A program made the position numbers and the translations under genes. Positions 2-41,451 of a stretch of DNA of 64,000 bases are shown here, in pieces. Under the pieces are notes generated by a model that did not search any database, was not told where the DNA came from, and was given only the letters and a program-made list of their open reading frames with translations. Position 1 is the stretch's first letter. The number at the start of each line of letters is the position of its first letter. The stretch lies in NCBI GenBank assembly GCA_037479115.1, contig JBBFLK010000007.1, positions 62,001 through 126,000 of the forward strand, in the 5' to 3' direction. The DNA is from Anaerohalosphaeraceae bacterium (GTDB taxonomy: Bacteria; Planctomycetota; Phycisphaerae; Sedimentisphaerales; Anaerohalosphaeraceae).

Positions 2-3000
2 ACGAACATGGCCAACATCGTGATGCGTCCTCAGGAGGATACCCGGATTGAGATTCAGCTTCCGGTTGCCAGTCCGGAGACCCGCCGCAAACGGCAGGCG
101 TTTCAGGAGGCGATTCAGAGTCTGGAACGGGACAATCTGAATCTGCTCCAGATCAAAAAGGCGCTGTCTCTGCCGAAAGAGGAGCGGCAGGCCCAGCTGA
201 CGGCAATGGCTCAGGGCCATCCGGAGCGGCTCGCTGTTTTGACGGCTTTGGCCGAAACATATGACTGGCGGACTTCGCTTCAGAATGAGCGGGACCAGGC
301 GTGGGCCCAGATGGAAGCCCTGCTTGCGCCGCTTCGGGAGCAGGGGTTGGATACCGATACCATCCAGTCCAACATTGCTCTGTGGAATGAACAGCCGCAA
401 GAGCGGCGAACGGAGGCGATGAAGGGGTTTGTCAAGTGGCTCAAGCCCGCCGAACCGGCTCAGGAGGAGCTGACGGAGGAACAGACGGCCCTGCTGGATG
501 TTCTGCAGCAGTATTTGGCGTTTTACGGCCGTTGGGCCATGTCGGTCAACGAATTAACTCGGCCGATAGACGGGGCCAATGTCCGGTGGAATAAGGCCGT
601 TGCCGACCTGAATCGGCTGAATCTGAATCTGCAGCAGCTGCAGGATATTCTCGACCTGCCGGCCAATTCGGCCCGTCGGCGGGAAGCCCTGGACGAGCTG
701 AAAAAGCAGTTTCCGGATCGGGCGGAAAAACTCAGTCAGGTGGAAAAACTCTTTGAGGACTACCGCAAGGTAGCCGGCCTGCTGGATGACCCGGAGGACC
801 TCAAGCGGATGCTGAAGGGCGCCGGTGTTCTCGAATTCCGGATTCTGCCGACCCCTGACGACGGCCGAACCAACATGGATGAGATTCGCGGCTATCTGGA
901 AGCCCTTCGTTTAAAAGGACCGCGACAGGCCTCCGACGCCAAATATGTCTGGGTCGAAATTGAGGACCCGGCCAACTGGCCGCAGGGGCTGGGAATTGTA
1001 GGCACGTTTGGGGATAAGCAGTACGTGCTGGCCAGCAATCAGCCGAAGGAATGTATGCTGCATTCTCCGGACAAAAAATGGAGGCTTCGGCGGGCATCCC
1101 CGACGCGGGACGACAAAGGACATCGGGCTATCAGCTTTACATTTAATCAGACAGCCGCCAATCTGTTTTTCAATCTGACCCAGTCGAATCTTGGCCGACC
1201 GCTGTGCATCATTCTGGATGACAGGGCTCTGTCGGCTCCGACCATTCGGGCGGCCATCAGCACACAAGGAATCATCGAAGGCCGATTCAGCCCCACGGAG
1301 CAGATGGATTTGGTTAACAAACTTAACGCCGGTTCGTTTCGGGCCAAGCTGTCGGAAGTGCCGATCTCCGAAAAAACCATCGGTCCCCTGCTGGGAGCTG
1401 ACAATCTGCGGCAGGGCCTTCGAGCCGGGTATACGGGGCTGATAGCCGTCGGAGTTTTCATGCTTTTCTATTACCTGCTGGCCGGAGTGCTCGCAGATAT
1501 TGCCCTGATGCTGAACCTGCTGTTTGTTCTGGCGATGATGGCGGCCTTTAATGCCACGTTTACGCTGCCGGGCATCGCCGGTTTAATCCTGACAATCGGC
1601 ATGAGCGTGGATGCCAACGTGCTGATTTTTGAACGAATCCGCGAGGAGCAGAAACGCGGCTCGGCCCTTCGTGCGGCGATTGCCAATGGTTACGGTCGGG
1701 CTTTTCGGACGATTTTTGACGCCAACCTGACTACATTCGGCGTTGCCTTTATTCTGCTGATGGTGGCCTCGGAGGAAATCAAGGGATTTGCCATCGTTTT
1801 GATGCTCGGTATTGTGTCGAGCATGTTTACCGGATTGTTTGTCACGCGGGTGATTTTTGATTTTCTGATCAGCCGCAGGATTCTGACTCAGCCGCTGAAA
1901 ATGTTTGCTCTTTTCCAGCAGGTTCGTGTGGACTGGATGAGTCTTCGGCCGGTGTTTCTGGTCATTTCCGGAACGCTGATGCTCGGCGGTCTGGCGGTTT
2001 TCTTTACACGCGATGAGACGACCAACAGCAAATATGACATTGAGTTTACCGGCGGAACCAGCGCTCAGATTGACCTGAAACCCGGAACCGCCTATACGCG
2101 AAGAATTGTGGAGGAAAAGTTCCGCCAATACGCTGAATCCATCGGCAACCGGGCGCTGGCGGCGGCCAAAGTGTACAGCATCGGCGACAGCGGACTTCAG
2201 TATGAAATCACCACAACGGAAACCAACCGCGGGCGAGCGGAAATTCTCTTTAAAGAACCCGGTCAGACCGTTCAGAGCGTTCAGAGTGCGATTCTGTCGG
2301 CTGCTCAGAAACTGCACCAGTCCCTGCCGTCTCTGGAAGTAAAGACGCTGGGAGACAACCGGTTCCAGATTACGACCCGACGGCTGAACCTTTCGCTGAT
2401 TCAGGAAGTGCTCCAGAATGCGTTCGGTGAAAAAGCCGAAATTGTTGAGATGAAAGTGGATGAAATTGTCAGCGATGCGATTCGAGCGGCCTTTAAGGAT
2501 TTGCTGGCGGTCAAAGAAAACCTTAACCCGCAGATACTCTCTGCACGCGAGGTACCGATCGGCACGCCGGAACTGGCTGACTTTGTCGGAGGGGTTCAGA
2601 TTCATGTGAAATTGGGGGTCCCGACAACCGCCGGTGATATTCGCACCCGGCTGCTGGATTTAAAATTTAAGCGGGATACCCAGCATTTCCAATGGTACCC
2701 CTTCCAGCTCCTGCACCCCAACCTGACGGAACTTCCCGATGAGCAGATTGTTGAGGAATTCCTCTATGTGAGCATGCATCCGGAAGCGGCATTCCGGTCG
2801 CTGTCGGAAGAGGAACGCGTTCAGTACACCAACAATGAAACCGCCCGGGTGATGCAGGCCCTTTCGATGGAAACATCGCTGTCCCGTGTTACGCAGATCG
2901 ACCCGTCCATCGGCTCGGAGGCAAAGGTGCGGGCGCTGCTGGCCATCATTCTTTCGCTGGCGGCGATTGTGCTTTATATCGGGTTCCGATTCGGCAGTGT

Positions 3001-28240: not shown

Positions 28241-28774
28241 ATGTCCGCAATTGAAAATGAACGCGTAAAGATTTTTCTGAATCTTTACTCCACATACCAG
28301 CATCGGATTTATGGATTTATTATGTCCATTGTCGGGGATTGGGATCAGGCGGACGATATCCTTCAGGAAACCATGAGTGTGCTGTGGAATAAGTTTGAAC
28401 AATACACTCCGGGAACAGATTTTCTGTCCTGGGCTCTGAAAGTCGCCCACTTCCAGGTGCTTTCGCATATCAAAAAGCAAAAGATTCAAAACAAGTATTT
28501 CAGCCGCAAGACCATCGAAAACATCAGCGAAATTGCCGCTTCTTTGTCGGGCGATACGGATGAATCTCTCAAGGCCCTTCGTCAGTGCATCAAAAAAATG
28601 TCGGAGCGCAGCCGGCAGCTTCTGGCTTTGCGTTATGAAGACGGCGCAACCATCCAGAAGATTGCCCAGCGGATTCAGGAAAGCGTCAACAGTCTCTACA
28701 AGGAATACCAGCGGATTCACCAACAGCTCTTTCAGTGCATCCGCAGGCAGATGGGGTGGGACGCTGAACGATGA
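28241..28774 (+). CDS. ECF-type RNA polymerase sigma factor
   Basis: A 177-residue sigma-70 family factor of the extracytoplasmic-function group, close to the planctomycete/verrucomicrobial subfamily. Region sigma-2 spans about 12-80 (GDWDQADDILQETMSVLWN, then SWALKVAHFQVLSHI). Region sigma-4 spans about 110-168 (LLALRYEDGATIQKIAQRIQ, a helix-turn-helix). Its stop overlaps the start of the FecR-type gene by four bases (ATGA), so the two are translationally coupled. The expected target is the downstream pectin locus, although no ECF promoter motif was identified. Confidence 0.9.
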   Translation: MSAIENERVKIFLNLYSTYQHRIYGFIMSIVGDWDQADDILQETMSVLWNKFEQYTPGTDFLSWALKVAHFQVLSHIKKQKIQNKYFSRKTIENISEIAASLSGDTDESLKALRQCIKKMSERSRQLLALRYEDGATIQKIAQRIQESVNSLYKEYQRIHQQLFQCIRRQMGWDAER

Positions 28775-31059
28775 AAAACGCTCGAGATATCCAGAGAATG
28801 TTTGAACTGCTGGACGCCGTCCGGGAAGGCACAATCCGTCCCGAAGAAGTGGAGGAATTGGACCGCATTTTAGCCGAGGACAAAAAGGCCTGCCGGTTCT
28901 ACTACGAGTATTTCAATATGTGTGCCCTTCTGCGAAGCGGCAAGGCCTTTGAACCGAACTTGTCCGGACTGCCGCAAGCGGGCGATTCCCTGCACAATAT
29001 GGCTTTTTGGAAGGCCATGGCCCGCGAAGAGGAAACGGCCCCGGGCATTGAACGGCCCGCCGAACCGAAAGAAACTATTGAACCCCAACCGAAAACAGGA
29101 CCAGGCCGGATTCCCGTCCGGGTCAGTCGCTTCTCTATCATCTCCCTGGCGCTGTCGGCCGCCGCTCTGTTTTTTCTGATTGGATATGCGCACATTGTTT
29201 CTCTGAAACGCGGCATTGAAGTCGCCACATTAACAGACAGTATCAAGGCGGTCTGGGCAGATCCGACTCTGTCGCTTCGCAATTCTTCCCGGCTGTCCAC
29301 GCATCAGCGTCTGGTTTTGTCCAAAGGAATCGCTGCCCTGAAAACAGACCAGGGTGTCTCACTGACTATTGAGGGGCCGGCGGAATTTGAGATGAAATCA
29401 GGCCATGAGATTCTGCTGACCTACGGGCGGCTTTATGTGCAGGTCTCTGCAGAAGGGATTGGCTTTACGGTCGAGACGCCGACAGCCAAAATGATTGATT
29501 TGGGTACGGAGTTCGGCGTGCAGGCAGACCTGAACGGTTCTTCCGAACTGCATGTGATGAAAGGAGCGGTCCATCTGTTTGCCGGTCCGAAAGGCAAACC
29601 CCACATCAGCCTGATTGTTCAGGAAAACAACGCCGTTCGATACAATAACCAAACCTTTGAAATTTCAGAAATTCGTCTCGAAAAATACAGGTTTGTCCGC
29701 TCGGTTGATTCCAAGAACCAGACCGTCTGGCGGGGGCAATCTTATATCTGCCTGGCGGATATTGTAGGCGGAGGGAACGGCGGCGGCAGCGGAAAACGCA
29801 ATCAGGCAATCGCCTGGGACGGACAAGGCCTCCTGGATGCCAGCCGGCTGAAACCATCTGGTCAAAGCCTTCGGTCCTATATTCCCGTTCGCTTCAGTCC
29901 TTACATCGACGGAATTTTCATTCCGGCCAGTCAGGGGGAACCGACCCCTCTTCGCTCCGAAAGTTCGGAACTGAATCTGGATGCGTTTCTGAAAGAAGAC
30001 ACCAACGGTCTGGTTACCCTGTTGGTGATGAAGAAGGATTCGGATGATGCCTCTATCTATTGGTTCTTCTCCAAAGAAGGAGCCCAGGGAGATCCGTCAA
30101 AAATGCCTTCCTTGTATTTCCCGCGGGGCCGGAACGGTCAGCCGGTTTTTGTAACAACAGCAGAGGGGGACGGGGCCGACACCTATTTGACGAATGATGT
30201 GATGAATCGGACCTGGCGCCGGTACGGCAGCTCCCATTTTCTGCACTGCCGGTATATTCAGGACCAGCGGGTTCGCATGATTTTGCTGCGGTTTGATATT
30301 CGCCAGGTAGAGGATGTAACAGGAGCTGTTTTCAACCTTTGTCTGGACAGCGGAAACCGCAAACGAAGTCTGTCGGTTTACGGCCTGCGGGACGGTCCGG
30401 AAGACTTCTGGGATGAGAATGAGACGGATTACCGCACAGCGCCCGGGTTCAAGAACGCCCCCTTCGGACGGTTTGAACTGAATGAGACGGTCTGGAGAGA
30501 ACTGGGCATTTTCCGTGTTGTGGACAACCGGGCTTCCCGCAGGCCGATTCCGATTGTTTCGGACGGTTCGATTCAGTGGGCTGCGAAGGAATCGCAAAGC
30601 CGGACGAATTTTGCCATAACAAATGCGGAAGAAATCCCCGACCCGCTTTCCCCGGAGCGGTTTGTGCGTCTTCAGCTCGGCGGTCAGGTTTGCGGGGCCG
30701 ACAATCCGGCGATTCTGATGCACGCCAATGCCGGAATTACGTTCGACCTGAACACTCTGCGAGCCGAATACGGACGCCTGAAATCCTTCACAGCTCTGTG
30801 CGGCCTGTCGCCGGTTGGTCCCCAAGAAAGCCGAACCAGCATTCCCAGGGCCGCTTTTTCTGTTCTTCTGGACGGACAGGAGGTCTTTGCCGCTGAAGAT
30901 ATGACACCGGATGATGCCCCCAAACCGATTCATATCTCCCTGCCGCCGACGTGCCGCTATCTGACCCTGATTGCTGCGGAGGGCTCTGATGATTCCATCG
31001 ACAATGACTTGTGCCTGTTTGTTAAACCCAGAATTCATCTGGAGGGAGCAGCGAACTGA
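28771..31059 (+). CDS. FecR-type membrane regulator with a DNRLRE module inserted in an NPCBM-like domain
   Basis: A 762-residue putative anti-sigma or signal transducer paired with the ECF factor. A short cytoplasmic helical region (about 1-60) is followed by a Pro/Glu linker, one membrane helix (120-142, FSIISLALSAAALFFLIGY) and a FecR domain (about 160-277, FTVETPTAKMIDLGTEFGVQ). An NPCBM-like domain common in planctomycete FecR proteins begins near 325 (YICLADIVGGGNGGGSG, then YIDGIFIP) and resumes near 631-759 (RLQLGGQVCG, ILMHANAGITFDL, RYLTLIAAEGSDDS). Between them lies about 210 residues resembling the DNRLRE/CBM96-like modules of the next genes. The segment order is reversed: the C-terminal part (398-452, ELNLDAFLKEDTNGLVTLLV) precedes the N-terminal part (458-600, VTTAEGDGADTY). 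The outer region may sense pectic glycans. Confidence 0.85.
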   Translation: MKNARDIQRMFELLDAVREGTIRPEEVEELDRILAEDKKACRFYYEYFNMCALLRSGKAFEPNLSGLPQAGDSLHNMAFWKAMAREEETAPGIERPAEPKETIEPQPKTGPGRIPVRVSRFSIISLALSAAALFFLIGYAHIVSLKRGIEVATLTDSIKAVWADPTLSLRNSSRLSTHQRLVLSKGIAALKTDQGVSLTIEGPAEFEMKSGHEILLTYGRLYVQVSAEGIGFTVETPTAKMIDLGTEFGVQADLNGSSELHVMKGAVHLFAGPKGKPHISLIVQENNAVRYNNQTFEISEIRLEKYRFVRSVDSKNQTVWRGQSYICLADIVGGGNGGGSGKRNQAIAWDGQGLLDASRLKPSGQSLRSYIPVRFSPYIDGIFIPASQGEPTPLRSESSELNLDAFLKEDTNGLVTLLVMKKDSDDASIYWFFSKEGAQGDPSKMPSLYFPRGRNGQPVFVTTAEGDGADTYLTNDVMNRTWRRYGSSHFLHCRYIQDQRVRMILLRFDIRQVEDVTGAVFNLCLDSGNRKRSLSVYGLRDGPEDFWDENETDYRTAPGFKNAPFGRFELNETVWRELGIFRVVDNRASRRPIPIVSDGSIQWAAKESQSRTNFAITNAEEIPDPLSPERFVRLQLGGQVCGADNPAILMHANAGITFDLNTLRAEYGRLKSFTALCGLSPVGPQESRTSIPRAAFSVLLDGQEVFAAEDMTPDDAPKPIHISLPPTCRYLTLIAAEGSDDSIDNDLCLFVKPRIHLEGAAN

Positions 31060-31141
31060 CGACAAAAAGACCTGATAAGCGTGAAGCTCGGAATGAAAAA
31101 AATGTTTTATTCATCGCAAACTTTTTTTGGAGGATTTTTTT

Positions 31142-32548
31142 ATGAGAACAGCATGGGTGATTGTTTTGTTGTGTCTGGCCGGGCTTGCCCGGGCGGAAAT
31201 GATTGTTTCCACAGCGGATGGAAACGGTGCGGATACGTTTGTGGGCAATGACAGCAACAAGGGCCCCAACAATAACTACGGTGCAAGTACCACAATGGAC
31301 ATCCGTAATTATACCAATGTACGTGCTCACATTGGATATGTGCGGTTCGATATTACAAGCATCGGCGGTGTGGACCCGACAGGGGCTCGTCTGGAACTGT
31401 TTCTTACACAGGCTCAGAACACTCGAACCTGGAACATTTACGGAGTTAAGGACGGTCCGAACGATTTCTGGAATGAGATGACGATTACGTACAACAACAG
31501 CCCGTGGATGCTTCCGGCCAGTGCCGGCAATTTTGCTTTGGATGAAACCAAAGTGGTCTTTTTGGGAACGATGTCCGTGCCGGCCGGAGGCAACATGCTC
31601 CGCACCTCCGATCCAGCTTCTCTGGATTTGGCTTCTTTCATCAAACAGGACACTAACAATCTGATTACGCTGATTCTCATTGGTCCGGCGGACGGCAGCG
31701 GGACTCAGTATTATGTCCTGACAAAAGAAGGACAGGCCGACTCAACGGACCCGACGTTTGTGGCACCGCGGCTGGTTTTGCCCGCTGAGCCCAATCCGTT
31801 CTGGGCATCCAATCCGAACCCCGCGATGAATCAGGTGGTTTCCACCAATCTGAACCAGCTGTGCTGGAGCAATCCGGAGCCCAATTTGCCGGGCGGCATC
31901 ATCACCTGCGATGTCTATTTCGGCACGCGGGAGCCCAATCGTCTGGCGCCGAATTATGATTTGGAATATACACTGGCCGTCAATACGACAAACACCTGTG
32001 TTTCGCTGCCGGGCAGTCTGGCTCAGTTTACACGCTATTACTGGGTCGTGGACGTGCGTGATTCTTCTCAGCCGGGCGTTCTCCATCGCGGCCGGGTCTG
32101 GTCGTTTAATACGTTCAACATCGGACCTTCTGTGAACGCCGGTCCTGATCAATATATCTGGCTGGGCCATCTTGGTGACCCGGCTACGGCCACGGTGTTC
32201 ATCAATGCCACGGCGACGGATGACGGTCTGCCGGAACCGCTGACTTATTTGTGGGAACAGCTGAGCGGCCCGACCGTAACCATCAGCCCCAATGATGTCG
32301 AAGATATCACTGTGGTCTTTACCGAGGCGGGTGACTATACATTCCGTCTGACCGTCAGCGATGGGGCGGAGTCCAACTCGGATTCTGTACGGGTTTTTGT
32401 TGGAACGGATGCCTGCGCAGCGGCCAAAGCCGTGCCTGGATTTGCCGCAAACCGGATGGACTTTAATTCTGACTGTCTGGTGAATCTGGCTGATCTGGCG
32501 ACCTTTGCCGCTCAGTGGATGGACTGCCGAAGCTTGTCCTGTCCGTAA
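31142..32548 (+). CDS. Secreted DNRLRE-domain protein with Fn3-like, PKD-like and dockerin-like domains
   Basis: A 468-residue exported protein with no recognised catalytic domain. Signal peptide about 1-18 (AWVIVLLCLAGLARA). A DNRLRE/CBM96-like beta-sandwich follows at about 20-215 (STADGNGADTFVGNDSNKGP, RTWNIYGVKDGPNDFWNEM). Next come an Fn3-like domain at about 218-325, a PKD-like domain at 326-423 (LTYLWEQLSGPTVTISP) and a C-terminal dockerin-like EF-hand (DFNSDCLVNLADLATFAAQW). The ATG at 31142 has GGAGG eight bases upstream; the frame also opens at a TTG at 31127. It is probably a glycan-binding component of the pectin locus. Confidence 0.82.
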   Translation: MRTAWVIVLLCLAGLARAEMIVSTADGNGADTFVGNDSNKGPNNNYGASTTMDIRNYTNVRAHIGYVRFDITSIGGVDPTGARLELFLTQAQNTRTWNIYGVKDGPNDFWNEMTITYNNSPWMLPASAGNFALDETKVVFLGTMSVPAGGNMLRTSDPASLDLASFIKQDTNNLITLILIGPADGSGTQYYVLTKEGQADSTDPTFVAPRLVLPAEPNPFWASNPNPAMNQVVSTNLNQLCWSNPEPNLPGGIITCDVYFGTREPNRLAPNYDLEYTLAVNTTNTCVSLPGSLAQFTRYYWVVDVRDSSQPGVLHRGRVWSFNTFNIGPSVNAGPDQYIWLGHLGDPATATVFINATATDDGLPEPLTYLWEQLSGPTVTISPNDVEDITVVFTEAGDYTFRLTVSDGAESNSDSVRVFVGTDACAAAKAVPGFAANRMDFNSDCLVNLADLATFAAQWMDCRSLSCP

Positions 32549-32563
32549 GAGAGCCGATTGTTC

Positions 32564-32589
32564 GGCGGGCGGAAGCAATTCCGCCCGCC
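32564..32589 (+). terminator. Stable intercistronic hairpin (GNRA loop) before the PEP-CTERM gene
   Basis: A perfect 11-bp GC-rich stem GGCGGGCGGAA/TTCCGCCCGCC is closed by a GCAA tetraloop and begins 15 bases after the upstream stop. TTTGAAAAAACTTTTTTT follows, so it may be a partial terminator, a processing barrier or both. Confidence 0.65.
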
Positions 32590-32622
32590 TTTGAAAAAAC
32601 TTTTTTTCAGGAGGTTGGAAAG

Positions 32623-33339
32623 ATGAAAAGAGTATTTCTGATTATGCTGACGGTGCTGTGGGTGTCTGCGGCCCAGGGCATTTTGATCACAACCGCAGAT
32701 GGCAACGGAGCTGATACCTTTGTGGGCAATGACAGCAACAAAGGCCCAAACAGCAACTATGGTGCAAGCGCTACCCTGGATATCCGCAACAATCCAGGAG
32801 TACGGGCTCACATCGGGTATATCCGGTTTGACCTGACCGGCGTCAGCGGCGATTTCAGCGGGGCTCAGCTTCAGTTTTATGTAACGCAGGGCGGAGCAAC
32901 CCGAACCTGGAACATTTACGGCTTAATCGACGGTGTGGATGATTTTTGGGGCGAAATGAGCATAACATACAATACAGCCCCCGGAATGATTCCGACGGAC
33001 CCGCAGGCCAATGGTACGTACATCATCGACGAGACCAAACTGACCCTGCTTGGAACAGTTCTTGTTCCGAATACACAGCCGGTTCTGGTGACCTCCAGCA
33101 CAGCAAGTCTGAATCTGGATTCTTTTCTGGCCGCCGATAGAAACAAACTGGTTACCTTTGTGCTGATTCCCACAGGAGGAGACCGGCAGTTTTATGTTGC
33201 GGCCAAAGAAGGGCTTGCCTCCAACCCGACCTGGTCAGCCCCGACGCTGATTCTGCCGAATGCTGTGCCGGAACCTGCCTCGCTGATGCTGCTGGCAGTC
33301 GGCAGCCTGGCGAGTCGTTTCAGAAAACAAAAACGGTAG
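32623..33339 (+). CDS. Secreted DNRLRE-domain protein with PEP-CTERM tail
   Basis: A 238-residue exported protein made of little more than one DNRLRE/CBM96-like module (about 18-212; TTADGNGADTFVGNDSNKGP, RTWNIYGLIDGVDDFWGEM) after a signal peptide (MKRVFLIMLTVLWVSAAQG). It ends in a PEP-CTERM sorting signal: VPEP, then hydrophobic ASLMLLAVGSLASRF, then basic RKQKR. The protein is therefore predicted to be processed by an exosortase and retained at the surface. AGGAGG lies about nine bases before the ATG at 32623; the frame extends further upstream without support. It is flanked by two strong RNA hairpins. It is likely a surface glycan-binding protein with no enzyme domain. Confidence 0.85.
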   Translation: MKRVFLIMLTVLWVSAAQGILITTADGNGADTFVGNDSNKGPNSNYGASATLDIRNNPGVRAHIGYIRFDLTGVSGDFSGAQLQFYVTQGGATRTWNIYGLIDGVDDFWGEMSITYNTAPGMIPTDPQANGTYIIDETKLTLLGTVLVPNTQPVLVTSSTASLNLDSFLAADRNKLVTFVLIPTGGDRQFYVAAKEGLASNPTWSAPTLILPNAVPEPASLMLLAVGSLASRFRKQKR

Positions 33340-33350
33340 GCGTGTTCACA

Positions 33351-33388
33351 GGGCATTTGCAGACATCAGGGAAGGTCTGCAAATGCCC
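33351..33388 (+). terminator. Long intercistronic hairpin after the PEP-CTERM gene
   Basis: A perfect 14-bp stem GGGCATTTGCAGAC/GTCTGCAAATGCCC with a 10-nt loop lies 12 bases after the stop. Only a short, broken T run follows (TTCTAT), so it could act as an attenuator or 3'-end stabiliser as well as a terminator. Confidence 0.65.
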
Positions 33389-33424
33389 TTCTATAGCCGC
33401 AACCTTCTTTCAAGGAGTGAAACG

Positions 33425-34276
33425 ATGCGAAAAAGCGGGTTTACGCTGATTGAACTGCTGGTGGTAATTGCCATCATAGGGCTGCTTCTGACGATTGTTA
33501 TGCCCGGTCTGAATCTGGCCAAAAAGAAAGCGGCTTCAGCAGTCTGCTTCAGCAATCTGCGGCAGATGTCCACCGGCTGGTTTATGTATCAGGACGAGAA
33601 CGGCGGCAGGATTATGAGCTGCCGGATGGAAAATGTCGGGACTCAGACGGTCTGTCAGCAGGGCTGGATTGGTCAGCCGCATCGGGAAACTGATGCCACA
33701 AGCTCCTCTCTGTCGATGACGCAGACGGCCCCGCCGGTCACCGATGAAGATGAAATCCGGGGTCTTCAGAAAGGAAAACTGTTTCCTTATCTGGGCACCC
33801 CTGAGGTGTATCACTGCCCGGCAGACAAACTGCGCAAAGGATGCGACGGCACACCGCTGTATGTGAGTTATGCGATGCCCTATTGTCTGAACAACGGCAG
33901 CAGCAATTCCATCAAAAAGATGGGGGAAATCAATCCGCCCAGCAAACGGTTTGTGTTTGTAGAAATCGGTACGTACGGGTCTCGAAACTGGTCCTGGAAC
34001 GGGTGGTGGTCGCTGGCAGCGCCCGGCAGCACCTCTGAGCCGTGGGGGCTGCACGACCCGCTGGCCGTCAGCCATGGAAACAGCGCCGTATTCGGCTTCG
34101 CAGACGGCCATTCAGAAATTCGCAAGTGGAAGGACACGATTGTGCTGGAGCACTATGCCAAAGGGGCGAATATGAAGCCCGGGGAACTCTATGGAGTGAC
34201 CTATCCGCCGGCCGGAACGCGCAGTGAAGATATTGAGTGGCTGTCCACCGGCTGGGCGCTGCGCCCGAGACGATAA
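33425..34276 (+). CDS. Prepilin-like protein with C-terminal H-X9-DG motif
   Basis: A 283-residue pseudopilin-type protein. The class III signal is MRKSGFTLIELLVVIAIIGL, with Gly5/Phe6 as the expected prepilin peptidase site and Glu10 in the usual place. The globular part contains FSNLRQMSTGWFMYQDENGG and a YHCPAD element. Near the end is HGNSAVFGFADGH, the H-X9-DG motif of planctomycete/verrucomicrobial processing-associated prepilins. AAGGAGTG lies upstream of the ATG at 33425. It sits inside the pectin locus, away from the secretion operon at 42.6-52 kb, and is probably a locus-specific pseudopilin. Confidence 0.88.
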   Translation: MRKSGFTLIELLVVIAIIGLLLTIVMPGLNLAKKKAASAVCFSNLRQMSTGWFMYQDENGGRIMSCRMENVGTQTVCQQGWIGQPHRETDATSSSLSMTQTAPPVTDEDEIRGLQKGKLFPYLGTPEVYHCPADKLRKGCDGTPLYVSYAMPYCLNNGSSNSIKKMGEINPPSKRFVFVEIGTYGSRNWSWNGWWSLAAPGSTSEPWGLHDPLAVSHGNSAVFGFADGHSEIRKWKDTIVLEHYAKGANMKPGELYGVTYPPAGTRSEDIEWLSTGWALRPRR

Positions 34277-34339
34277 GGTCTCTTTTCCGGGGAAAAATTC
34301 CGACAGCATCCGCGGCCCCAACAGCAAAGGGAGTATCAA

Positions 34340-37318
34340 ATGGTTCTGAAATCGGGTTCTGTTCCGACTCTTCTGCTGCTCTGTTTGTTCAATCTTTCGG
34401 AAGATGTTCTTTTTGCCGGTCGAAAAGTTTATAATTTCAATCCCGGCTGGAAAGTTTTTGTCGGAGATTCGGCAGATGCTCAGAGGCCGGATTTTGATGA
34501 CAGTCACTGGAAGCAAGTGACGCTGCCTTATGCATGGAATCAGGAAGAGGCCTTTCGAAAAGATATTCGGGACCTTTCGACAGGGATTGCCTGGTATCGC
34601 AAGCATTTTGTCCTGCCGGAAGGAACGGCCGGACAAAAGGTTTTTCTTGAATTCCAAGGCGTCCGTCAAGCCGGTGAGTTTTATCTGAACGGCTGCTTCC
34701 TCGGGCGCCATGAAAACGGAGTGACGGCGTTTGGTTTTGACATCACCAATCTGGTCAAACCGGCTCCGGAAGCGAATGTTTTGGCTGTCCGAGTAGACAA
34801 CAGCTGGGAGTATCGGGAAAAAGCAACCAACAGCCGTTACCAGTGGAATGACCGTAATTTTAACGCCAACTACGGCGGAATTACCAAAAATGTTAAGCTG
34901 CATCTGGCCGGAAAACTCTATCAGACCCTACCTCTCTATACCACACTGGGGACCAGCGGGGTGTACATCTACGCCCGGGACTTTGATATTCCGAATCAAA
35001 CAGCCGTTGTGTGTGCAGAATCCCAGGTCCGGAATGAGACCGATTCCGCTCAGACCTTTCACTGCGAAGTAAGCATCCAGGATAGGGATGGCCGAATCGT
35101 AAAGTCCTTCACAAGCATTCCCTATACCCTGGCGCCGGGGGGCACAGTCATTGTGCAGGCCTCCGGACGAGTGGAAGGACTGCATTTCTGGAGTTGGGGC
35201 TACGGGTACTTATATGATGTGATTACAAGGTTAATCAAAGACGGAACGGCGGTCGATGAAGTCCGCACGCGGACCGGTTTTCGAAAAACCGAGTTTCGCG
35301 ACGGAATGATTTTCCTGAATGACCGTGTGATTCAGGTGAAAGGGTATGCCCAGCGAAGCACAAACGAGTGGCCTGCCGTCGGGGTTTCCGTGCCCCCGTG
35401 GATGAGCGATTTCAGCAACCGCCTGATGGTCGAAAGCAATGCGAATCTGGTCCGCTGGATGCATATTACCCCCAGCAAACAAGATATAGAATCCTGCGAC
35501 CGCGTCGGACTGATTCAGGCGATGCCGGCAGGAGATGCGGAATCGGATGTGAGCGGGCGGCGGTGGGAGCATCGGCTGGAAGTCATGCGGGATGCAATCA
35601 TTTATAATCGGAACAATCCGAGCATTCTGTTTTACGAAGCCGGCAACAAGGGAATCAGCGAAGCCCATATGGCGGAGATGAAGCACATCCGGGACTGCTG
35701 GGACCCGCATGGGGGGCGAGCAATAGGCTGCCGGGAGATGCTCGACAGCCGAATTGCCGAATACGGCGGAGAGATGCTGTATATTAACAAAAGCGCTCGT
35801 ATCCCGATGTGGGCGATGGAATATTCACGGGATGAGGGACTGCGGAAATACTGGGATGAGTACTCGCCCCCATATCACAAGGATGGGGATGGCCCTCGCC
35901 GGGGCAATACGCCGCCGGAGCCGTACAACCGCAATCAGGATTCGCACGCGATTGAAAATGTGATTCGCTGGTACGATTACTGGGAACATCGTCCGGGAAC
36001 AGGCCGTCGGGTCAGTTCCGGAGGGGTTAATATTATTTTTTCCGATACGAATACGCATTATCGCGGAGCGGAAAATTACCGACGAAGCGGTGAAGTTGAT
36101 GCGGTGCGGCTTCCGAAAGACGGCTGGTTTGCTCATCAGGTAATGTGGGACGGCTGGGTGGACATTGAGAGGCCGCGAATTCATCTGCTGGGGCATTGGA
36201 ATTACCAGCCGGAAGTCAAAAAGAATGTTTACGCTGTTTCCGGCGCCGAAAAAGTCGAATTATTCATCAACGGCCGATCGATGGGCTTTGGAGAGCAGAG
36301 CTGTCGGTTTCTTTTTACATTCCGCGATATTAGCTGGGAGCCGGGGGCGATTTGGGCCGTGGGCTATGATGCCCAGGGTCGGGAAGTCTGCCGAACGGAG
36401 AAAATCACAGCCGGTCCGCCGAAACGGATTCGGTTAACCGTCCATACAGGGCCGAAAGGGCTTCGGGCGGATGGAGCTGATATGGCCCTGATTGACGTGG
36501 AGGTGGTGGATGCCGAAGGCCGCCGCTGCCCAACGGCTATGAATCTGATTCGGTTTGAGCTGACCGGACCAGCGGAATGGATAGGCGGTATCGCACAGGG
36601 GCCGGACAATTATATCCTGTCCAAAGAGCTGCCTGTTGAGTGCGGCGTAAACCGGGTGATGATTCGTTCGACTGTTCAGGCCGGACAAATCGTGCTGACC
36701 GCTGCTTCGGAGGGGCTGGAAGAAGCTCAAATTGAAATCACGTCCCGGCCTGTTGAAGTTGTCAACGGTCTCTGTGTTGAACTGCCGGATGCTGAACTTG
36801 TCGGGAATTTGAGCCGCGGTCCGACGCCAAAAGGTCCGTCGCTCCAAATCAGCCGTGTTCCGATTTCCGCCGCTCGGATTACGGCCGGAGCCAATCCGGA
36901 CCAGGCGATGCTGACTGTCGATGACAACGAACGCACGGGCTGGGAAAATGACGGAACGCTCCGGACGGCATGGCTCAAATACGAATTTTCCGGAGAAACC
37001 CTCGTCGGGGAAGTAGTTATCAAGTTCGGCGACTGGCGGAGGCGGACATATCCAATCCGTATTCGGGTTGATGACAAAATCGTCTTTGCAGGAAGGACTC
37101 GCCAGAATCTCGGCTATTATACCATTCGATTTGAGCCGGTTCGGGGACGAAGTCTGACGGTAGAGCTGACCGGGCGTCCTGATGAGCAGGATGCCTTTGG
37201 GCTGGTGGAAGTCACCGGTCAGAAGGATGAGGCCGGGACGGAAACAGCTGCATCGTCGGCCAGAGGGACATTGAAGATTCTGGAACTGGAAATCTACGGT
37301 CCGGTAACCAAACCATAA
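34340..37318 (+). CDS. Secreted glycoside hydrolase family 2 enzyme with altered acid/base site
   Basis: A 992-residue GH2-type exported enzyme (signal peptide about 1-27). The N-terminal jelly-roll (about 30-200) shows SHWKQVTLPYAWN, TGIAWYRKHFVLP and FYLNGCFLGRHENGVTAFGF. An immunoglobulin-like domain follows, then a TIM barrel from about 315 (GMIFLNDRVIQVKGYAQR). In the acid/base region NNPSILFYEAGNKG (425-438), Lys437 occupies the place of the catalytic Glu in the canonical GNE motif; Glu433 is nearby. A nucleophile candidate is Glu494 in WAMEYS. Immunoglobulin-like domains follow and a discoidin-like beta-sandwich ends the protein (about 850-990). AAAGGGAG precedes the ATG. The expected role is removal of galactosyl or related side chains from rhamnogalacturonan; activity needs proof. 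Confidence 0.85.
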   Translation: MVLKSGSVPTLLLLCLFNLSEDVLFAGRKVYNFNPGWKVFVGDSADAQRPDFDDSHWKQVTLPYAWNQEEAFRKDIRDLSTGIAWYRKHFVLPEGTAGQKVFLEFQGVRQAGEFYLNGCFLGRHENGVTAFGFDITNLVKPAPEANVLAVRVDNSWEYREKATNSRYQWNDRNFNANYGGITKNVKLHLAGKLYQTLPLYTTLGTSGVYIYARDFDIPNQTAVVCAESQVRNETDSAQTFHCEVSIQDRDGRIVKSFTSIPYTLAPGGTVIVQASGRVEGLHFWSWGYGYLYDVITRLIKDGTAVDEVRTRTGFRKTEFRDGMIFLNDRVIQVKGYAQRSTNEWPAVGVSVPPWMSDFSNRLMVESNANLVRWMHITPSKQDIESCDRVGLIQAMPAGDAESDVSGRRWEHRLEVMRDAIIYNRNNPSILFYEAGNKGISEAHMAEMKHIRDCWDPHGGRAIGCREMLDSRIAEYGGEMLYINKSARIPMWAMEYSRDEGLRKYWDEYSPPYHKDGDGPRRGNTPPEPYNRNQDSHAIENVIRWYDYWEHRPGTGRRVSSGGVNIIFSDTNTHYRGAENYRRSGEVDAVRLPKDGWFAHQVMWDGWVDIERPRIHLLGHWNYQPEVKKNVYAVSGAEKVELFINGRSMGFGEQSCRFLFTFRDISWEPGAIWAVGYDAQGREVCRTEKITAGPPKRIRLTVHTGPKGLRADGADMALIDVEVVDAEGRRCPTAMNLIRFELTGPAEWIGGIAQGPDNYILSKELPVECGVNRVMIRSTVQAGQIVLTAASEGLEEAQIEITSRPVEVVNGLCVELPDAELVGNLSRGPTPKGPSLQISRVPISAARITAGANPDQAMLTVDDNERTGWENDGTLRTAWLKYEFSGETLVGEVVIKFGDWRRRTYPIRIRVDDKIVFAGRTRQNLGYYTIRFEPVRGRSLTVELTGRPDEQDAFGLVEVTGQKDEAGTETAASSARGTLKILELEIYGPVTKP

Positions 37319-37343
37319 AACGGCTATTTGCTATGGGGGTTTT

Positions 37344-40292
37344 ATGAAATTCGGAACAGTCTTTCGGTCATGCGTATTCGCGTTGTTTCTGTCGGGAGCC
37401 GCTGCTTTTCCGGAAGTGATTTTATCCACGGCAGATGGGAACGGGGCCGATACTTTTGTCGGCAATGACAGCAACAAAGGTCCTGACAGTAATTATGGCG
37501 GCTCCTCTACCATGGACATTCGCAACTATACGGGTGTGAGAGCTCATATTGGGTACGTCCGATTTGACCTCAATCCCGTCCGCGGGCGGAATCTGTCGGG
37601 GGCTCTTCTTCAGCTGTTTATCACTTCCGCACAGAACTCAAGAACATGGAATGTCTACGGAGTGATTGACGGTCCGGATGATTTGTGGAATGAGATGACC
37701 ATTACATACAACAACAGTCCCTGGATGCTTCCGGCTTCCTCGGGTAATTTTGCTCTGAATGAAGCGAAGGTGACTTTTCTGGGAACTCTGTTTGTCCCGG
37801 CCGGTTCGAATTATACGCTGACTTCCAATCCGTCTTCTCTGAATTTGGATTCTTTTCTTGCCGGCGATACGAACGGGCTGGTAACGTTTGTGCTGATTGG
37901 CCCGGCAGACGGCAGCGGTTCGCAGTATTATGCCGCCACGAAGGAGGGAGTTTCCGCCCCTGCCATCATTTTGCCGAATGCCTATTGGATTGAGCCGGCC
38001 AACCAGCCGCAGCCGGACGGCACTCAACCCGTTTCCGGAGACAATGTAGTTTTCAGCTGGCGGCCGGGGCAGATTCTCCATCCCACGGAACCCGGCCAGA
38101 CGATTGCCGACCCGAAAATTACGGGCTTTTATCTGTACTGGATTCAATATCCCCGCGATTCGGAGCCTCAAAGTCCTGATTTTTCCGGCGTAACACCCGT
38201 TTATGTTCCGCGAGGTACGCAGGAGCGGGACCAATATCCGATATCCGGTCCCGGTCTTGTCTTTTCAAAGAATCAGGTGGTTTATTGGCGTGTTGATGAA
38301 TCCATTTACGGTTCGCAGGCGGGGGCTCCGGAAACGGTCACCGGACCGGTCTGGCGGTTTGAAACAGAAAGGACGGCTCCTGCCCGCCGGTATATGGAAA
38401 ATTTGGGACGCGGTGTAGTTGCCGTACGAAACAGCAGCGGCGTGTTTGTCAGTTGGCGTCTGTTGGGAACCGACCCTGAAGACATTGGATTTAATCTTTA
38501 CCGCTCTGCGGCCGGTGGACCTCCTGTCAAACTGAACAGCACAGTGCTGACGGGCGGGACCAACTTCACCGATACGACAGCCAATCTTTCTGTGAATAAT
38601 ACCTACTTTGTCAGACCGGTACTGAACGGTGCAGAACAGGCGGCAAGCGGCTCCTATACACTGCCCGCCAACAGCCCGGTCCAGCCGCTGATTGTGATTC
38701 CTCTGCAGACAAGCAATACGGATGAGATTCACTTTGTCTGGGTGGGAGATTTGGACGGAGACGGCGAATATGATTTTGTGCTGGACCGTCTGAACTGGGA
38801 GGGAAGGCCTCAGTCCCTCGAGGCTTACCGGCGGGACGGTACCTTTTTGTGGTCGGTCAATCTGGGGCCCAACAGCACCAACACCTATACCATAGAACCC
38901 GGCTCAGCCACCATTGATGTAGGACACTGGGACGGAGTCACCGTGTACGACCTGGACTGCGACGGAAAGGCGGAGGTTGTGCTTCGCACCGCCCGGGGCG
39001 TTGTTTTCGGCGACGGAACGGTTTTGACAGCCCCCAATGACCTGGTGCAGTTCATTTCCGTTTTGGACGGAATGACCGGGGCGGAACGGGCCCGTATTCA
39101 GATACCAACCGACTACATTGCAGACGGACCGATGGGAGCGCACATGGGTATCGGCTATCTGAACGGCAAGACGCCGAGCATCATTGCCTCGATGAAAAAC
39201 CGCATCGGGGATGGGGATTTTAATATGATGATTTGTGCTTGGGACTTTGACGGGACGGCACTGACCCAGCGATGGAAGTGGCTCCGCGGGTCACAAAACT
39301 GTCCGGACGGCCACCAAATCCGCATCATCGATGTCGATGGGGATGGAATGGATGAGGTCTGCCATCTCGGCTTTGTACTCCGGAACAATGGAACGCTGCT
39401 TTACAATCTCGGCGAGCAGGGAATCGTTCACGGGGACCGCTGGCATATCGGCAAGTTCGACCCCAGCCGGCCCGGCCTTCAGGGATACGGTATCCAGCAA
39501 AGCAATCCGAGCGGCCTGCGGTTTTACTACTATGACGCCGGCACCGGACAGATTCTATGGTCTTACTCTGCTTCGGTGGTGGATGTGGGACGAGGAGATG
39601 TCGGAGATACAGACCCACGATATCCGGGTTTTGAATGCTGGGCATTTGACGGAATGTGGAACGGTCCGACGGGGATTCAGATTGCGCCGAATGCCCCGTG
39701 GCCCTGCCTGCGCCTCTGGTGGGATGGAGATGAGCTGAGCGAAAGCTACAACGACGGCAAAATTGAAAAATGGATTTACAGCACCAGTTCCGTTTCACGG
39801 CTTGTCACCACGTGGAACTATGAAACCTATACCCGCAGCGATCGGGGCTGTCCGATGTTTTACGGCGATATTCTCGGGGACTGGCGGGAGGAGGTCATCG
39901 TGACCAACAGCAATTATACCAAGCTGGGGATTTTTACCACGAATGTTCCCACCAGCCGGCGGATTTACACCCTTCCGCACAATCCGGCTTATCGAAACAG
40001 CATGACGGTCAAAGGGTATATGCAGTCGCATCATGTTGATTTTTATCTGGGAAATGGAATGAGCACTCCGCCTAAGCCGCCGATTCGCTTGGCGGGCGTT
40101 CCTTTCCATCCGACGGATTTGGTTCGAGACGGAAAAATTGACATGAACGACTTTGCCGTCTTGTCATCCCAGTGGATGAACTCTCCCGCGGTTCCTTCGG
40201 CAGATTTGGCGCCTGCCGGCGGGGACGGGCAAGTCAATTTGGCTGACCTGGTCTTTTTTTGCGAGAACTGGCTGACTGTTGATTTGGACTAA
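37344..40292 (+). CDS. Secreted PL11 rhamnogalacturonan lyase with DNRLRE and dockerin-like domains
   Basis: A 982-residue exported lyase predicted to cleave rhamnogalacturonan I. Signal peptide about 1-22. A DNRLRE/CBM96-like module spans about 24-212 (STADGNGADTFVGNDSNKGP), and an Fn3-like linker domain about 215-340. The PL11 eight-bladed propeller runs from about 349 to 905, with RYMENLGRGVVAVR, FVWVGDLDGDGEYDFVLDRL, DGPMGAHMGIGYLNGKTP, DVDGDGMDEV and SRRIYTLPHNPAYRNSM. The repeated DxDGDG segments are the calcium sites of this family. A dockerin-like pair ends the protein (DGKIDMNDFAVLSSQWM and DGQVNLADLVFFCENWL). The start is 26 bp after the GH2 stop with GGGGG upstream. It is the last gene of the pectin locus. 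Confidence 0.93.
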   Translation: MKFGTVFRSCVFALFLSGAAAFPEVILSTADGNGADTFVGNDSNKGPDSNYGGSSTMDIRNYTGVRAHIGYVRFDLNPVRGRNLSGALLQLFITSAQNSRTWNVYGVIDGPDDLWNEMTITYNNSPWMLPASSGNFALNEAKVTFLGTLFVPAGSNYTLTSNPSSLNLDSFLAGDTNGLVTFVLIGPADGSGSQYYAATKEGVSAPAIILPNAYWIEPANQPQPDGTQPVSGDNVVFSWRPGQILHPTEPGQTIADPKITGFYLYWIQYPRDSEPQSPDFSGVTPVYVPRGTQERDQYPISGPGLVFSKNQVVYWRVDESIYGSQAGAPETVTGPVWRFETERTAPARRYMENLGRGVVAVRNSSGVFVSWRLLGTDPEDIGFNLYRSAAGGPPVKLNSTVLTGGTNFTDTTANLSVNNTYFVRPVLNGAEQAASGSYTLPANSPVQPLIVIPLQTSNTDEIHFVWVGDLDGDGEYDFVLDRLNWEGRPQSLEAYRRDGTFLWSVNLGPNSTNTYTIEPGSATIDVGHWDGVTVYDLDCDGKAEVVLRTARGVVFGDGTVLTAPNDLVQFISVLDGMTGAERARIQIPTDYIADGPMGAHMGIGYLNGKTPSIIASMKNRIGDGDFNMMICAWDFDGTALTQRWKWLRGSQNCPDGHQIRIIDVDGDGMDEVCHLGFVLRNNGTLLYNLGEQGIVHGDRWHIGKFDPSRPGLQGYGIQQSNPSGLRFYYYDAGTGQILWSYSASVVDVGRGDVGDTDPRYPGFECWAFDGMWNGPTGIQIAPNAPWPCLRLWWDGDELSESYNDGKIEKWIYSTSSVSRLVTTWNYETYTRSDRGCPMFYGDILGDWREEVIVTNSNYTKLGIFTTNVPTSRRIYTLPHNPAYRNSMTVKGYMQSHHVDFYLGNGMSTPPKPPIRLAGVPFHPTDLVRDGKIDMNDFAVLSSQWMNSPAVPSADLAPAGGDGQVNLADLVFFCENWLTVDLD

Positions 40293-40302
40293 TACTCCAA
40301 AA

Positions 40303-40316
40303 GTCTTTGCAAAGAC
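40303..40316. repeat. 14-bp perfect palindrome between convergent genes
   Basis: GTCTTTGCAAAGAC lies in the 34-bp gap between the convergent PL11 and GT4 stops. It may form a cruciform or short hairpin, but no T run follows on either strand. Confidence 0.4.
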
Positions 40317-40326
40317 AGTGTCCTGT

Positions 40327-41451
40327 TCAAGGCGTCTTCCGTGAATCGGATGACTGTTTCCGAACCGACAAATATAGCTCTATCAGCTGCTCAATCATCC
40401 TGCTGACAGGGTGATGGCGGCGAACGTAATCCTGCGCCGCTGCAGCCAGCTGACGGGCCAGCTCCGGGCGGCTCAGAAGTTTCTTCAGAGCCGTATAAAT
40501 GCTCAATTCATTGTTCGGTTCCAGCCAAAGGGCTGTTTTGCCGTCCTGCAGCAGCCCCCCCGCCGGGTCCGGTGCCCCCGCTATGGCCAGTCCCGTTCCC
40601 ATGACCTCCAGCAAAAGCGGCTCGAATCGCCGGACCGGATTCAGATAAACAAAGATATCGGCCCCGGACAGCACATCCCGAATTGACTCCTCCATCGGAA
40701 CCACAATGGCATTCGCCCGCAGACCGAGATTCCTTACCCTTCGTCGAACCGCATGTTCCGCCCGTCCGGAACCAAGAATCGCCGCAAAAAAGTCAAATCC
40801 GTCCAGCCGCAGGTGTCGCAGGGCCTGAAGAAACGGTTCCAGCGATTCGGCCCGGTCCAGCGGATGAGCCAGAACCAGACTCGGCAGACGGGAGGGGTCG
40901 GAAAAACAGACACAGGTATCCTCTGCATAGCAGCCGGGTCGGATCAGATGAATCGGAGGCAGCTGTCCGCGTCCGTTTTGCCGGACAGCCTGCAGAATCG
41001 GCTCACTGGCGGCTGTCAGAGCATCCGCCTGCTCAAAAGGAAACAGCCGGCTGAAGAGTTTGGTCGGAAAGTCAAAAAAAGACAGGATATAAGGGACCTC
41101 AAAGCAGTCGGAAAGAAAACGCAGCAGGCGTGCATGGGCCGGCCAAACGCCGTGCAGGACCGTCGGGCGATAGGAATAAATCAGTTCAAGAAACTCCTGC
41201 ATGGGCCGGCTCCAACTGCGGAACTGCCAGCCCTGAGGATACTCAAAAACCTCTACGGACGGACATAAAACCTTATAAAAATCGCTTCCCTGCGGCCCCG
41301 CCAGCGCCGGACGATAGGACGACCCGACAAACCCCACAAGCATACTTCGAAAAAGTCCGGGGTACAGCCGAAGCACCTCCGGCCGGACAAAAAGCAAAGG
41401 CCTGCAAACCTTCCGACACGCTCCGCCGGTATTGTTTTGGTCAGGAGGCAT
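40327..41451 (-). CDS. GT4-type glycosyltransferase
   Basis: A 374-residue GT-B glycosyltransferase. The C-terminal donor-binding half (about 190-345) contains VLAHPLDRAESLEPFLQAL, AILGSGRAEHAVRRRV, IRDVLSGADIFVYLNPVRRF and EPLLLEVMGTGLAIAG, the E-x7-E-like nucleotide-sugar region. The N-terminal half has VLHGVWPAHARLLRFL. There is no membrane helix. It lies 6 bp after panB on the same strand, so they are probably cotranscribed although unrelated. Donor sugar and product are unknown; surface polysaccharide or a small glycoside is plausible. Confidence 0.75.
   Translation of the reverse strand: MPPDQNNTGGACRKVCRPLLFVRPEVLRLYPGLFRSMLVGFVGSSYRPALAGPQGSDFYKVLCPSVEVFEYPQGWQFRSWSRPMQEFLELIYSYRPTVLHGVWPAHARLLRFLSDCFEVPYILSFFDFPTKLFSRLFPFEQADALTAASEPILQAVRQNGRGQLPPIHLIRPGCYAEDTCVCFSDPSRLPSLVLAHPLDRAESLEPFLQALRHLRLDGFDFFAAILGSGRAEHAVRRRVRNLGLRANAIVVPMEESIRDVLSGADIFVYLNPVRRFEPLLLEVMGTGLAIAGAPDPAGGLLQDGKTALWLEPNNELSIYTALKKLLSRPELARQLAAAAQDYVRRHHPVSRMIEQLIELYLSVRKQSSDSRKTP

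What the first reader, a model, noticed from the sequence alone, without database searches (positions are those of the whole stretch)
29959..30570. Circularly permuted DNRLRE module inserted inside the NPCBM domain of a FecR-type regulator
In the FecR protein, residues about 398-452 (ELNLDAFLKEDTNGLVTLLV, SKEG) match the C-terminal part of the DNRLRE modules encoded just downstream (SLNLDSFLAGDTNGLVTFVL, TKEG). Residues about 458-600 (VTTAEGDGADTY, VYGLRDGPEDFWDE, FELNETVWRELGIFRV) match their N-terminal part. The order is therefore swapped. This block interrupts an NPCBM-like domain whose halves lie at about 325-390 and 631-759. The regulator thus seems to have captured the binding module of its own target proteins. 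That would let an anti-sigma factor sense the same glycan, or compete with the surface proteins, a signalling arrangement I do not recognise as described.
Basis: partly seen in the sequence, partly recalled or inferred. Interest (0 to 1): 0.72.

Follow-up and report, generated by a model that had tools for sequence, protein, structure and literature searches.

The report
Rearranged sugar-binding domain inside anti-sigma sensor
A membrane regulator that probably switches on pectin-digesting genes carries, spliced into its own sugar-binding domain, a second sugar-binding domain of the kind found in the enzymes it appears to control, with the two ends of that domain swapped; a related regulator elsewhere has acquired the same kind of domain at a neighbouring spot with a different swap.

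Summary
In the 762-aa FecR-type anti-sigma protein (28771-31059), residues 389-592 are a complete CBM96/DNRLRE domain in circularly permuted order (profile 124-185 precedes 1-128). It sits in a loop of an NPCBM (CBM51-like) sensor domain that is uninterrupted in nearly all relatives. It is not an artefact: two congeneric genomes carry the same insert (85% and 59% identical), with dN/dS 0.10 against the nearest.

Two regulators of another genus carry a CBM96 with a different cut point at a different NPCBM loop, in a pectate-lyase locus; insert-free relatives occupy equivalent loci. So capture with permutation probably happened twice, though one origin is not excluded.

The sensor half and downstream genes appear to move together: a congener has the same sigma factor and cytoplasmic half joined to an unrelated sensor and cargo between the same flanks; another has the same sensor and cargo under a different sigma.

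The module is in the family of the cargo's CBM96 but is not derived from today's neighbours. Anti-sigma factors bearing glycan-binding modules like their targets' are known (Clostridium RsgI); the permuted domain-within-domain form is what is new. Likely function: pectin/rhamnogalacturonan sensing (inferred, no binding data).

The parts
28241..28774 (+). ECF-type sigma factor (177 aa); its stop overlaps the fecR start codon (28771)
   Evidence: Sigma70_r2 and r4_2; coordinates
28771..31059 (+). FecR-type anti-sigma regulator, 762 aa, host of the insert
28771..29070 (+). cytoplasmic anti-sigma domain (residues 1-100); 95% identical to a G003 protein whose sensor is unrelated, 24% to the G001 protein that has the same sensor
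29122..29199 (+). hydrophobic segment, probable membrane helix (residues 118-143)
   Evidence: read from the sequence
29296..29733 (+). FecR/PupR-type cell-surface-signalling domain (residues 176-321)
   Evidence: Pfam FecR; model matches 6ovk PupR Z 16.5 and 4m0n Z 16.1
29734..29934 (+). first part of the NPCBM (CBM51-like) domain, residues 322-388
   Evidence: relative alignment and host HMM; model match to CBM51 2vmi, range 179..612 = residues 323-756, Z 12.6
29935..30546 (+). whole insert, residues 389-592
   Evidence: absent from insert-free sister hosts; host HMM break
29950..30123 (+). CBM96 C-terminal segment, now first (residues 394-451), with the calcium-site-like EDTNGL
   Evidence: HMM 124-185, E 2e-8
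30124..30144 (+). linker RGRNGQP joining the old C and N termini
   Evidence: alignments A2 and A4
30145..30519 (+). CBM96 N-terminal and middle segments, now second (residues 459-583)
   Evidence: HMM 1-128, E 3e-23; Pfam CBM96; model match 8wab_B Z 7.4, 110 residues
30547..31056 (+). second part of the NPCBM domain, residues 593-762
   Evidence: Pfam NPCBM 648-755; host HMM; CBM51 match
31127..32548 (+). secreted CBM96-PKD protein with a dockerin-like tail, natural order
   Evidence: tail read from the sequence
32515..33339 (+). CBM96 protein with PEP-CTERM, natural order
33383..34276 (+). prepilin-type (N-methylation) protein
34340..37318 (+). GH2 glycosidase
37344..40292 (+). CBM96-rhamnogalacturonan lyase (RGL11/PL11) with a weak dockerin match

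Best explanation
The protein is a one-pass FecR-type anti-sigma factor for the adjacent ECF sigma factor. Its extracytoplasmic sensor is a CBM51-like NPCBM domain into which a complete, circularly permuted CBM96 domain has been inserted through a loop (shown by sequence; fold partly supported by models). It most likely works by binding a pectic polysaccharide, plausibly rhamnogalacturonan I, which triggers release of the sigma factor by regulated proteolysis and expression of the downstream CBM96 proteins, GH2 and PL11 lyase (inferred). The permutation probably arose from tandem copies of CBM96 cut at new ends, which left termini that fit the host loop (inferred). The sensor half and cargo appear to be inherited and exchanged as one cassette behind a conserved sigma/anti-sigma head (shown by comparison at one locus).
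For: Complementary HMM matches in swapped order. Same insert in two congeners; purifying selection, dN/dS 0.10. Insert-free sister hosts show the uninterrupted site. A second form with another cut point and loop in genus g12; its middle and C segments model as CBM96 (7vbo Z 13.1, 139 of 182 residues). In all five proteins the D near the conserved W and the D-x-N-G motif, which lie at or near the calcium ligands of 7VBO (Asp82, Asp140, Asp142; PMC9971899), are kept although they now lie in swapped order. Split NPCBM models as CBM51, Z 12.6. Locus encodes PL11 and GH2; the second form lies beside a PL10 pectate lyase. Cassette exchange. Precedent: RsgI3 binds pectin and its sigma factor activates pl11 (PMC4711584).
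Against: No binding, transcription or proteolysis data. Nine FecR loci with CBM96 cargo in the set lack the insert, so sharing the cargo's module is not required for control. The model has low confidence at the junctions and in the first NPCBM part, so contact of the two CBM96 segments was not shown by coordinates. Most lysines of the alginate groove of 7VBO are not conserved in the window's CBM96 domains, so the ligand is a guess.
Confidence: 0.62

Rival explanations
1. Single capture: one permuted CBM96 entered the ancestor of the seven-member FecR clade, was lost in the insert-free sisters, and was re-permuted and moved by one loop in one lineage.
For: All carriers fall in one host clade (94/62); both types share the rare C-to-N junction with a similar linker (49% identity); segment C is slightly closer between types (40-49%) than to natural domains (best 39-45%); one clade of the inserts is not rejected, p-AU 0.34.
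Against: Different loop, different cut point, and insert-free hosts group with type 1 to the exclusion of type 2 (95/84), so it needs a loss plus a re-permutation; segments A and B show no special closeness.
Confidence: 0.35
2. The insert is a structural ornament or spacer without a sensing role; the NPCBM alone senses.
For: Most of the 72 FecR sensors surveyed are NPCBM without CBM96 or another module shared with their cargo, including nine with CBM96 cargo.
Against: Purifying selection (dN/dS 0.10), kept calcium-site-like residues, and association with CBM96 cargo (Fisher p 0.003, or 0.02 counting two events; the sample was partly chosen by CBM96 hits).
Confidence: 0.2
3. The insert binds the same glycan or partner as the secreted proteins and acts as a competitor or feedback device.
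For: Same domain family in regulator and cargo.
Against: No direct evidence; a plain sensor explains the same facts.
Confidence: 0.1
4. Assembly error, or two unrelated partial domains.
For: None found.
Against: Same arrangement in three genomes assembled separately and another permutation in two more; the segments complement each other almost exactly.
Confidence: 0.01

Closest known systems
RsgI1-RsgI6 anti-sigma-I factors of Clostridium thermocellum (PMC4711584)
   Same: Membrane anti-sigma factor with an extracellular glycan-binding module; RsgI6 carries a GH10 domain 57% identical to the xylanase Xyn10D of its regulon; RsgI3 binds pectin and sigma-I3 activates pl11.
   Different: Sigma-I and RsgI-N domain, Gram-positive, modules appended at the C terminus, none described there as permuted or inserted in another domain.
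FecR/PupR cell-surface signalling anti-sigma factors (6ovk, 4m0n)
   Same: ECF partner, cytoplasmic anti-sigma head, membrane helix, FecR periplasmic domain (Z 16.5).
   Different: Known ones receive the signal from a TonB-dependent receptor (my knowledge); here glycan-binding domains follow the FecR domain.
CBM96/DNRLRE domain (7vbo, alginate; 8wab, chondroitin sulfate)
   Same: Both segments match the family; calcium-site-like motifs kept.
   Different: Order of segments permuted, inserted inside another CBM, groove lysines mostly absent.
NPCBM / CBM51 (2vmi)
   Same: Host domain models as CBM51, Z 12.6 over 124 of 146 residues.
   Different: Interrupted by about 204 residues.
Circularly permuted RoCBM21 (PMC3511584, abstract seen)
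   Same: A permuted carbohydrate-binding module that still folds and binds.
   Different: Engineered, not natural; not inserted in another domain.

Membership tests
CBM96 / DNRLRE | Sequence match to the family profile | tested here: met
   Pfam CBM96 34 bits, cut-off 26; local HMM both segments
CBM96 / DNRLRE | Segments in the family's linear order | tested here: not met
   Profile 124-185 precedes 1-128; filed as a permuted derivative, not an ordinary member
CBM96 / DNRLRE | One closed beta-sandwich | tested here: inconclusive
CBM96 / DNRLRE | Calcium-site acidic residues | tested here: met
   D near W and D-x-N-G kept in five of five permuted domains; equivalence to Asp140/142 of 7VBO is by motif position only
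CBM96 / DNRLRE | Glycan binding | not testable with these tools
   needs a binding assay
NPCBM / CBM51 | Profile match and fold | tested here: met
   Pfam 34.9 bits, cut-off 23.9; CBM51 Z 12.6
FecR-type anti-sigma factor | FecR periplasmic domain | tested here: met
   Pfam FecR just above cut-off; PupR match Z 16.5
FecR-type anti-sigma factor | Adjacent ECF sigma factor | tested here: met
   28241-28774
FecR-type anti-sigma factor | Binds and inhibits its sigma factor | not testable with these tools
   needs experiment
RsgI / sigma-I system | RsgI N-terminal domain and sigma-I partner | tested here: not met
   No RsgI family in the Pfam scan; sigma is ECF type with regions 2 and 4. Works like it, is not a member

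The most novel reading that the evidence does not exclude
In this planctomycete family, sensor half and cargo of ECF/FecR pectin loci are exchanged as one cassette behind a fixed sigma/anti-sigma head, and sensors repeatedly take up the accessory module of their own cargo: permuted CBM96 twice independently (PL11 and PL10 loci) and an undescribed module once (a pectate-lyase locus, 46% identity to both cargo proteins). This would make sensor-cargo matching a general rule for these regulators when they depart from NPCBM.
Probability: 0.4. Interest if true: 0.75.

Novelty: new variant of a known kind. Interest (0 to 1): 0.6.

Why it matters
Natural circular permutation combined with insertion into another domain is unusual, and here two forms occur in one small clade of regulators with insert-free relatives at hand, so the event can be dated and reconstructed. 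The cassette exchange gives a way to read a regulator's ligand from its cargo, and a source of glycan sensors with exchangeable heads.

Tried and rejected
Artefact and chance: rejected by orthologues and HMM scores. Donor among present neighbours: rejected by tree and identities. First mixed-fragment alignment A3 was misaligned and not used. A general rule that every FecR shares a module with its cargo: rejected, none of the plain NPCBM sensors matches its cargo. LamG sensors: one matches its own cargo, but also many others, so not counted. 7vbo did not appear in the match list for the window model, whose order is permuted; this says nothing about the fold. Papers on planctomycete FecR with glycan sensing or NPCBM: none relevant found in the library, which omits most subscription journals.

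Full report
What is there. The gene at 28771-31059 encodes a 762-residue FecR-type protein whose start overlaps the stop of an ECF sigma factor gene. Pfam finds FecR, CBM96 and NPCBM. An HMM built from the three CBM96 domains encoded downstream matches the protein twice, with its C-terminal part first: positions 124-185 at residues 381-444 (E 2e-8) and 1-128 at residues 459-584 (E 3e-23). An HMM of FecR-NPCBM relatives matches residues 125-398 and 589-760, so the host domain is continuous but for the insert (the five insert-bearing hosts, with the insert cut out in the script, were among the sequences of that HMM). The insert is residues 389-592.

It is real. The closest relatives of the whole region lie in two genomes of the same genus, 83% and 56% identical. 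The insert itself is 85% and 59% identical over a slightly wider range, residues 392-617, and is under purifying selection (dN/dS 0.10 against G004). The junction joining the old ends spans fully in only five of 161 genomes of the order, the same five of 397 of the class, and four loci in the genome collection besides the window. Three of the five are this form (type 1).

A second form. Regulators in G024 and G028, of another genus of the family, also hold a CBM96 in the NPCBM, but profile 40-193 comes first and 3-51 after it, and it sits after the host strand VSTDPHLRW instead of before it. The type 2 match of its N-terminal segment is weak (E 0.002-0.01) but its motif GNGADTY is plain. Sister hosts without any insert (L024, L025, L026) read straight through both sites. 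In the host tree, carriers and two of these sisters form one clade of seven rows, support 94/62; the sisters join type 1 (95/84; L025 is partial and was not in the tree). Two captures are the simpler reading; a single origin with loss and re-permutation is not excluded, since both types share the junction and a similar linker and monophyly of the inserts is not rejected. Nearly adjacent CBM96-like domains exist in the family (L066), which offers a route.

Fold. AlphaFold gave moderate confidence for the insert (about 77) and poor confidence for the first NPCBM part and the exits. The FecR domain matches PupR (Z 16.5), and the NPCBM, taken across the insert, matches CBM51 (Z 12.6 over 124 residues). 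Segments A+B match a CBM96 only at Z 7.4. In type 2 the segments B+C match 7vbo at Z 13.1.

Setting. The window locus encodes CBM96 proteins, a GH2 enzyme and a rhamnogalacturonan lyase. The type 2 locus has a pectate lyase PL10 upstream and a CBM96-like protein downstream; an insert-free host in G025 lies in an equivalent locus. In a set of 72 FecR loci, no plain NPCBM sensor resembles its cargo, whereas the four insert carriers with testable cargo do (type 2 only at E 3e-4; the fifth, G028, lies on a truncated contig). Insert and CBM96 cargo are associated (Fisher p 0.003; 0.02 if only two events are counted), with the caveat that some loci were fetched because of CBM96.

Cassette exchange. 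Window and G003 share flanking DNA at 82-92%, including the sigma gene and the first 101 codons of fecR (28241-29073), and again from 40379 (86%); in between, 11.3 kb of the window is replaced by 7.5 kb with another sensor and an alpha-galactosidase. Conversely, the G001 regulator with the same insert has periplasmic parts 54-59% identical but an anti-sigma head only 24% and a sigma only 33% identical. A G001 locus with the matching head (60%) and sigma (78%) has a third sensor, 46% identical to a domain in both proteins encoded next to it, one of them a pectate lyase. Among the 62 FecR proteins compared, the pair window/G003 shows the strongest discordance of head and sensor.

How it most likely works, and what is known. 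The best reading is a pectin or RG-I sensing anti-sigma factor. Steps shown: anatomy, conservation, locus, exchange. Steps inferred: ligand, proteolytic signalling, promoter control. RsgI factors of C. thermocellum already show glycan-binding anti-sigma factors, one with a domain like that of its target enzyme and one that binds pectin and whose sigma activates pl11 (PMC4711584). So the logic is known; the permuted module inside another module, its second form, and the exchange of sensor plus cargo are the new parts.

Noticed in passing
window 28241-29073 and 29073-40379; L112 (G003:C41): Sensor half of fecR and downstream cargo are replaced as a block between conserved flanks, with one border inside fecR near codon 101.
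   Followed up: yes
L113:2576-8768 (G001:C6): A FecR whose NPCBM is replaced by a 275-residue module with no Pfam name, 46% identical to the N-terminal domains of both proteins encoded downstream, one a pectate lyase with dockerin.
   Followed up: partly
L045:4920-7211: A single ORF appears to fuse an ECF sigma factor, the anti-sigma head, FecR and NPCBM.
   Followed up: no
window 33383-34276; L043, L147, L148, L149: A prepilin-type N-methylation protein recurs in these loci, directly downstream of fecR in L043, L147, L148 and L149.
   Followed up: no
own genome G000: About 15 FecR paralogues, most with an uninterrupted NPCBM, at least one with LamG.
   Followed up: partly
L066:25-2673 (G010): Two CBM96-like domains nearly adjacent in one protein, a possible precursor arrangement for permutation.
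   Followed up: no
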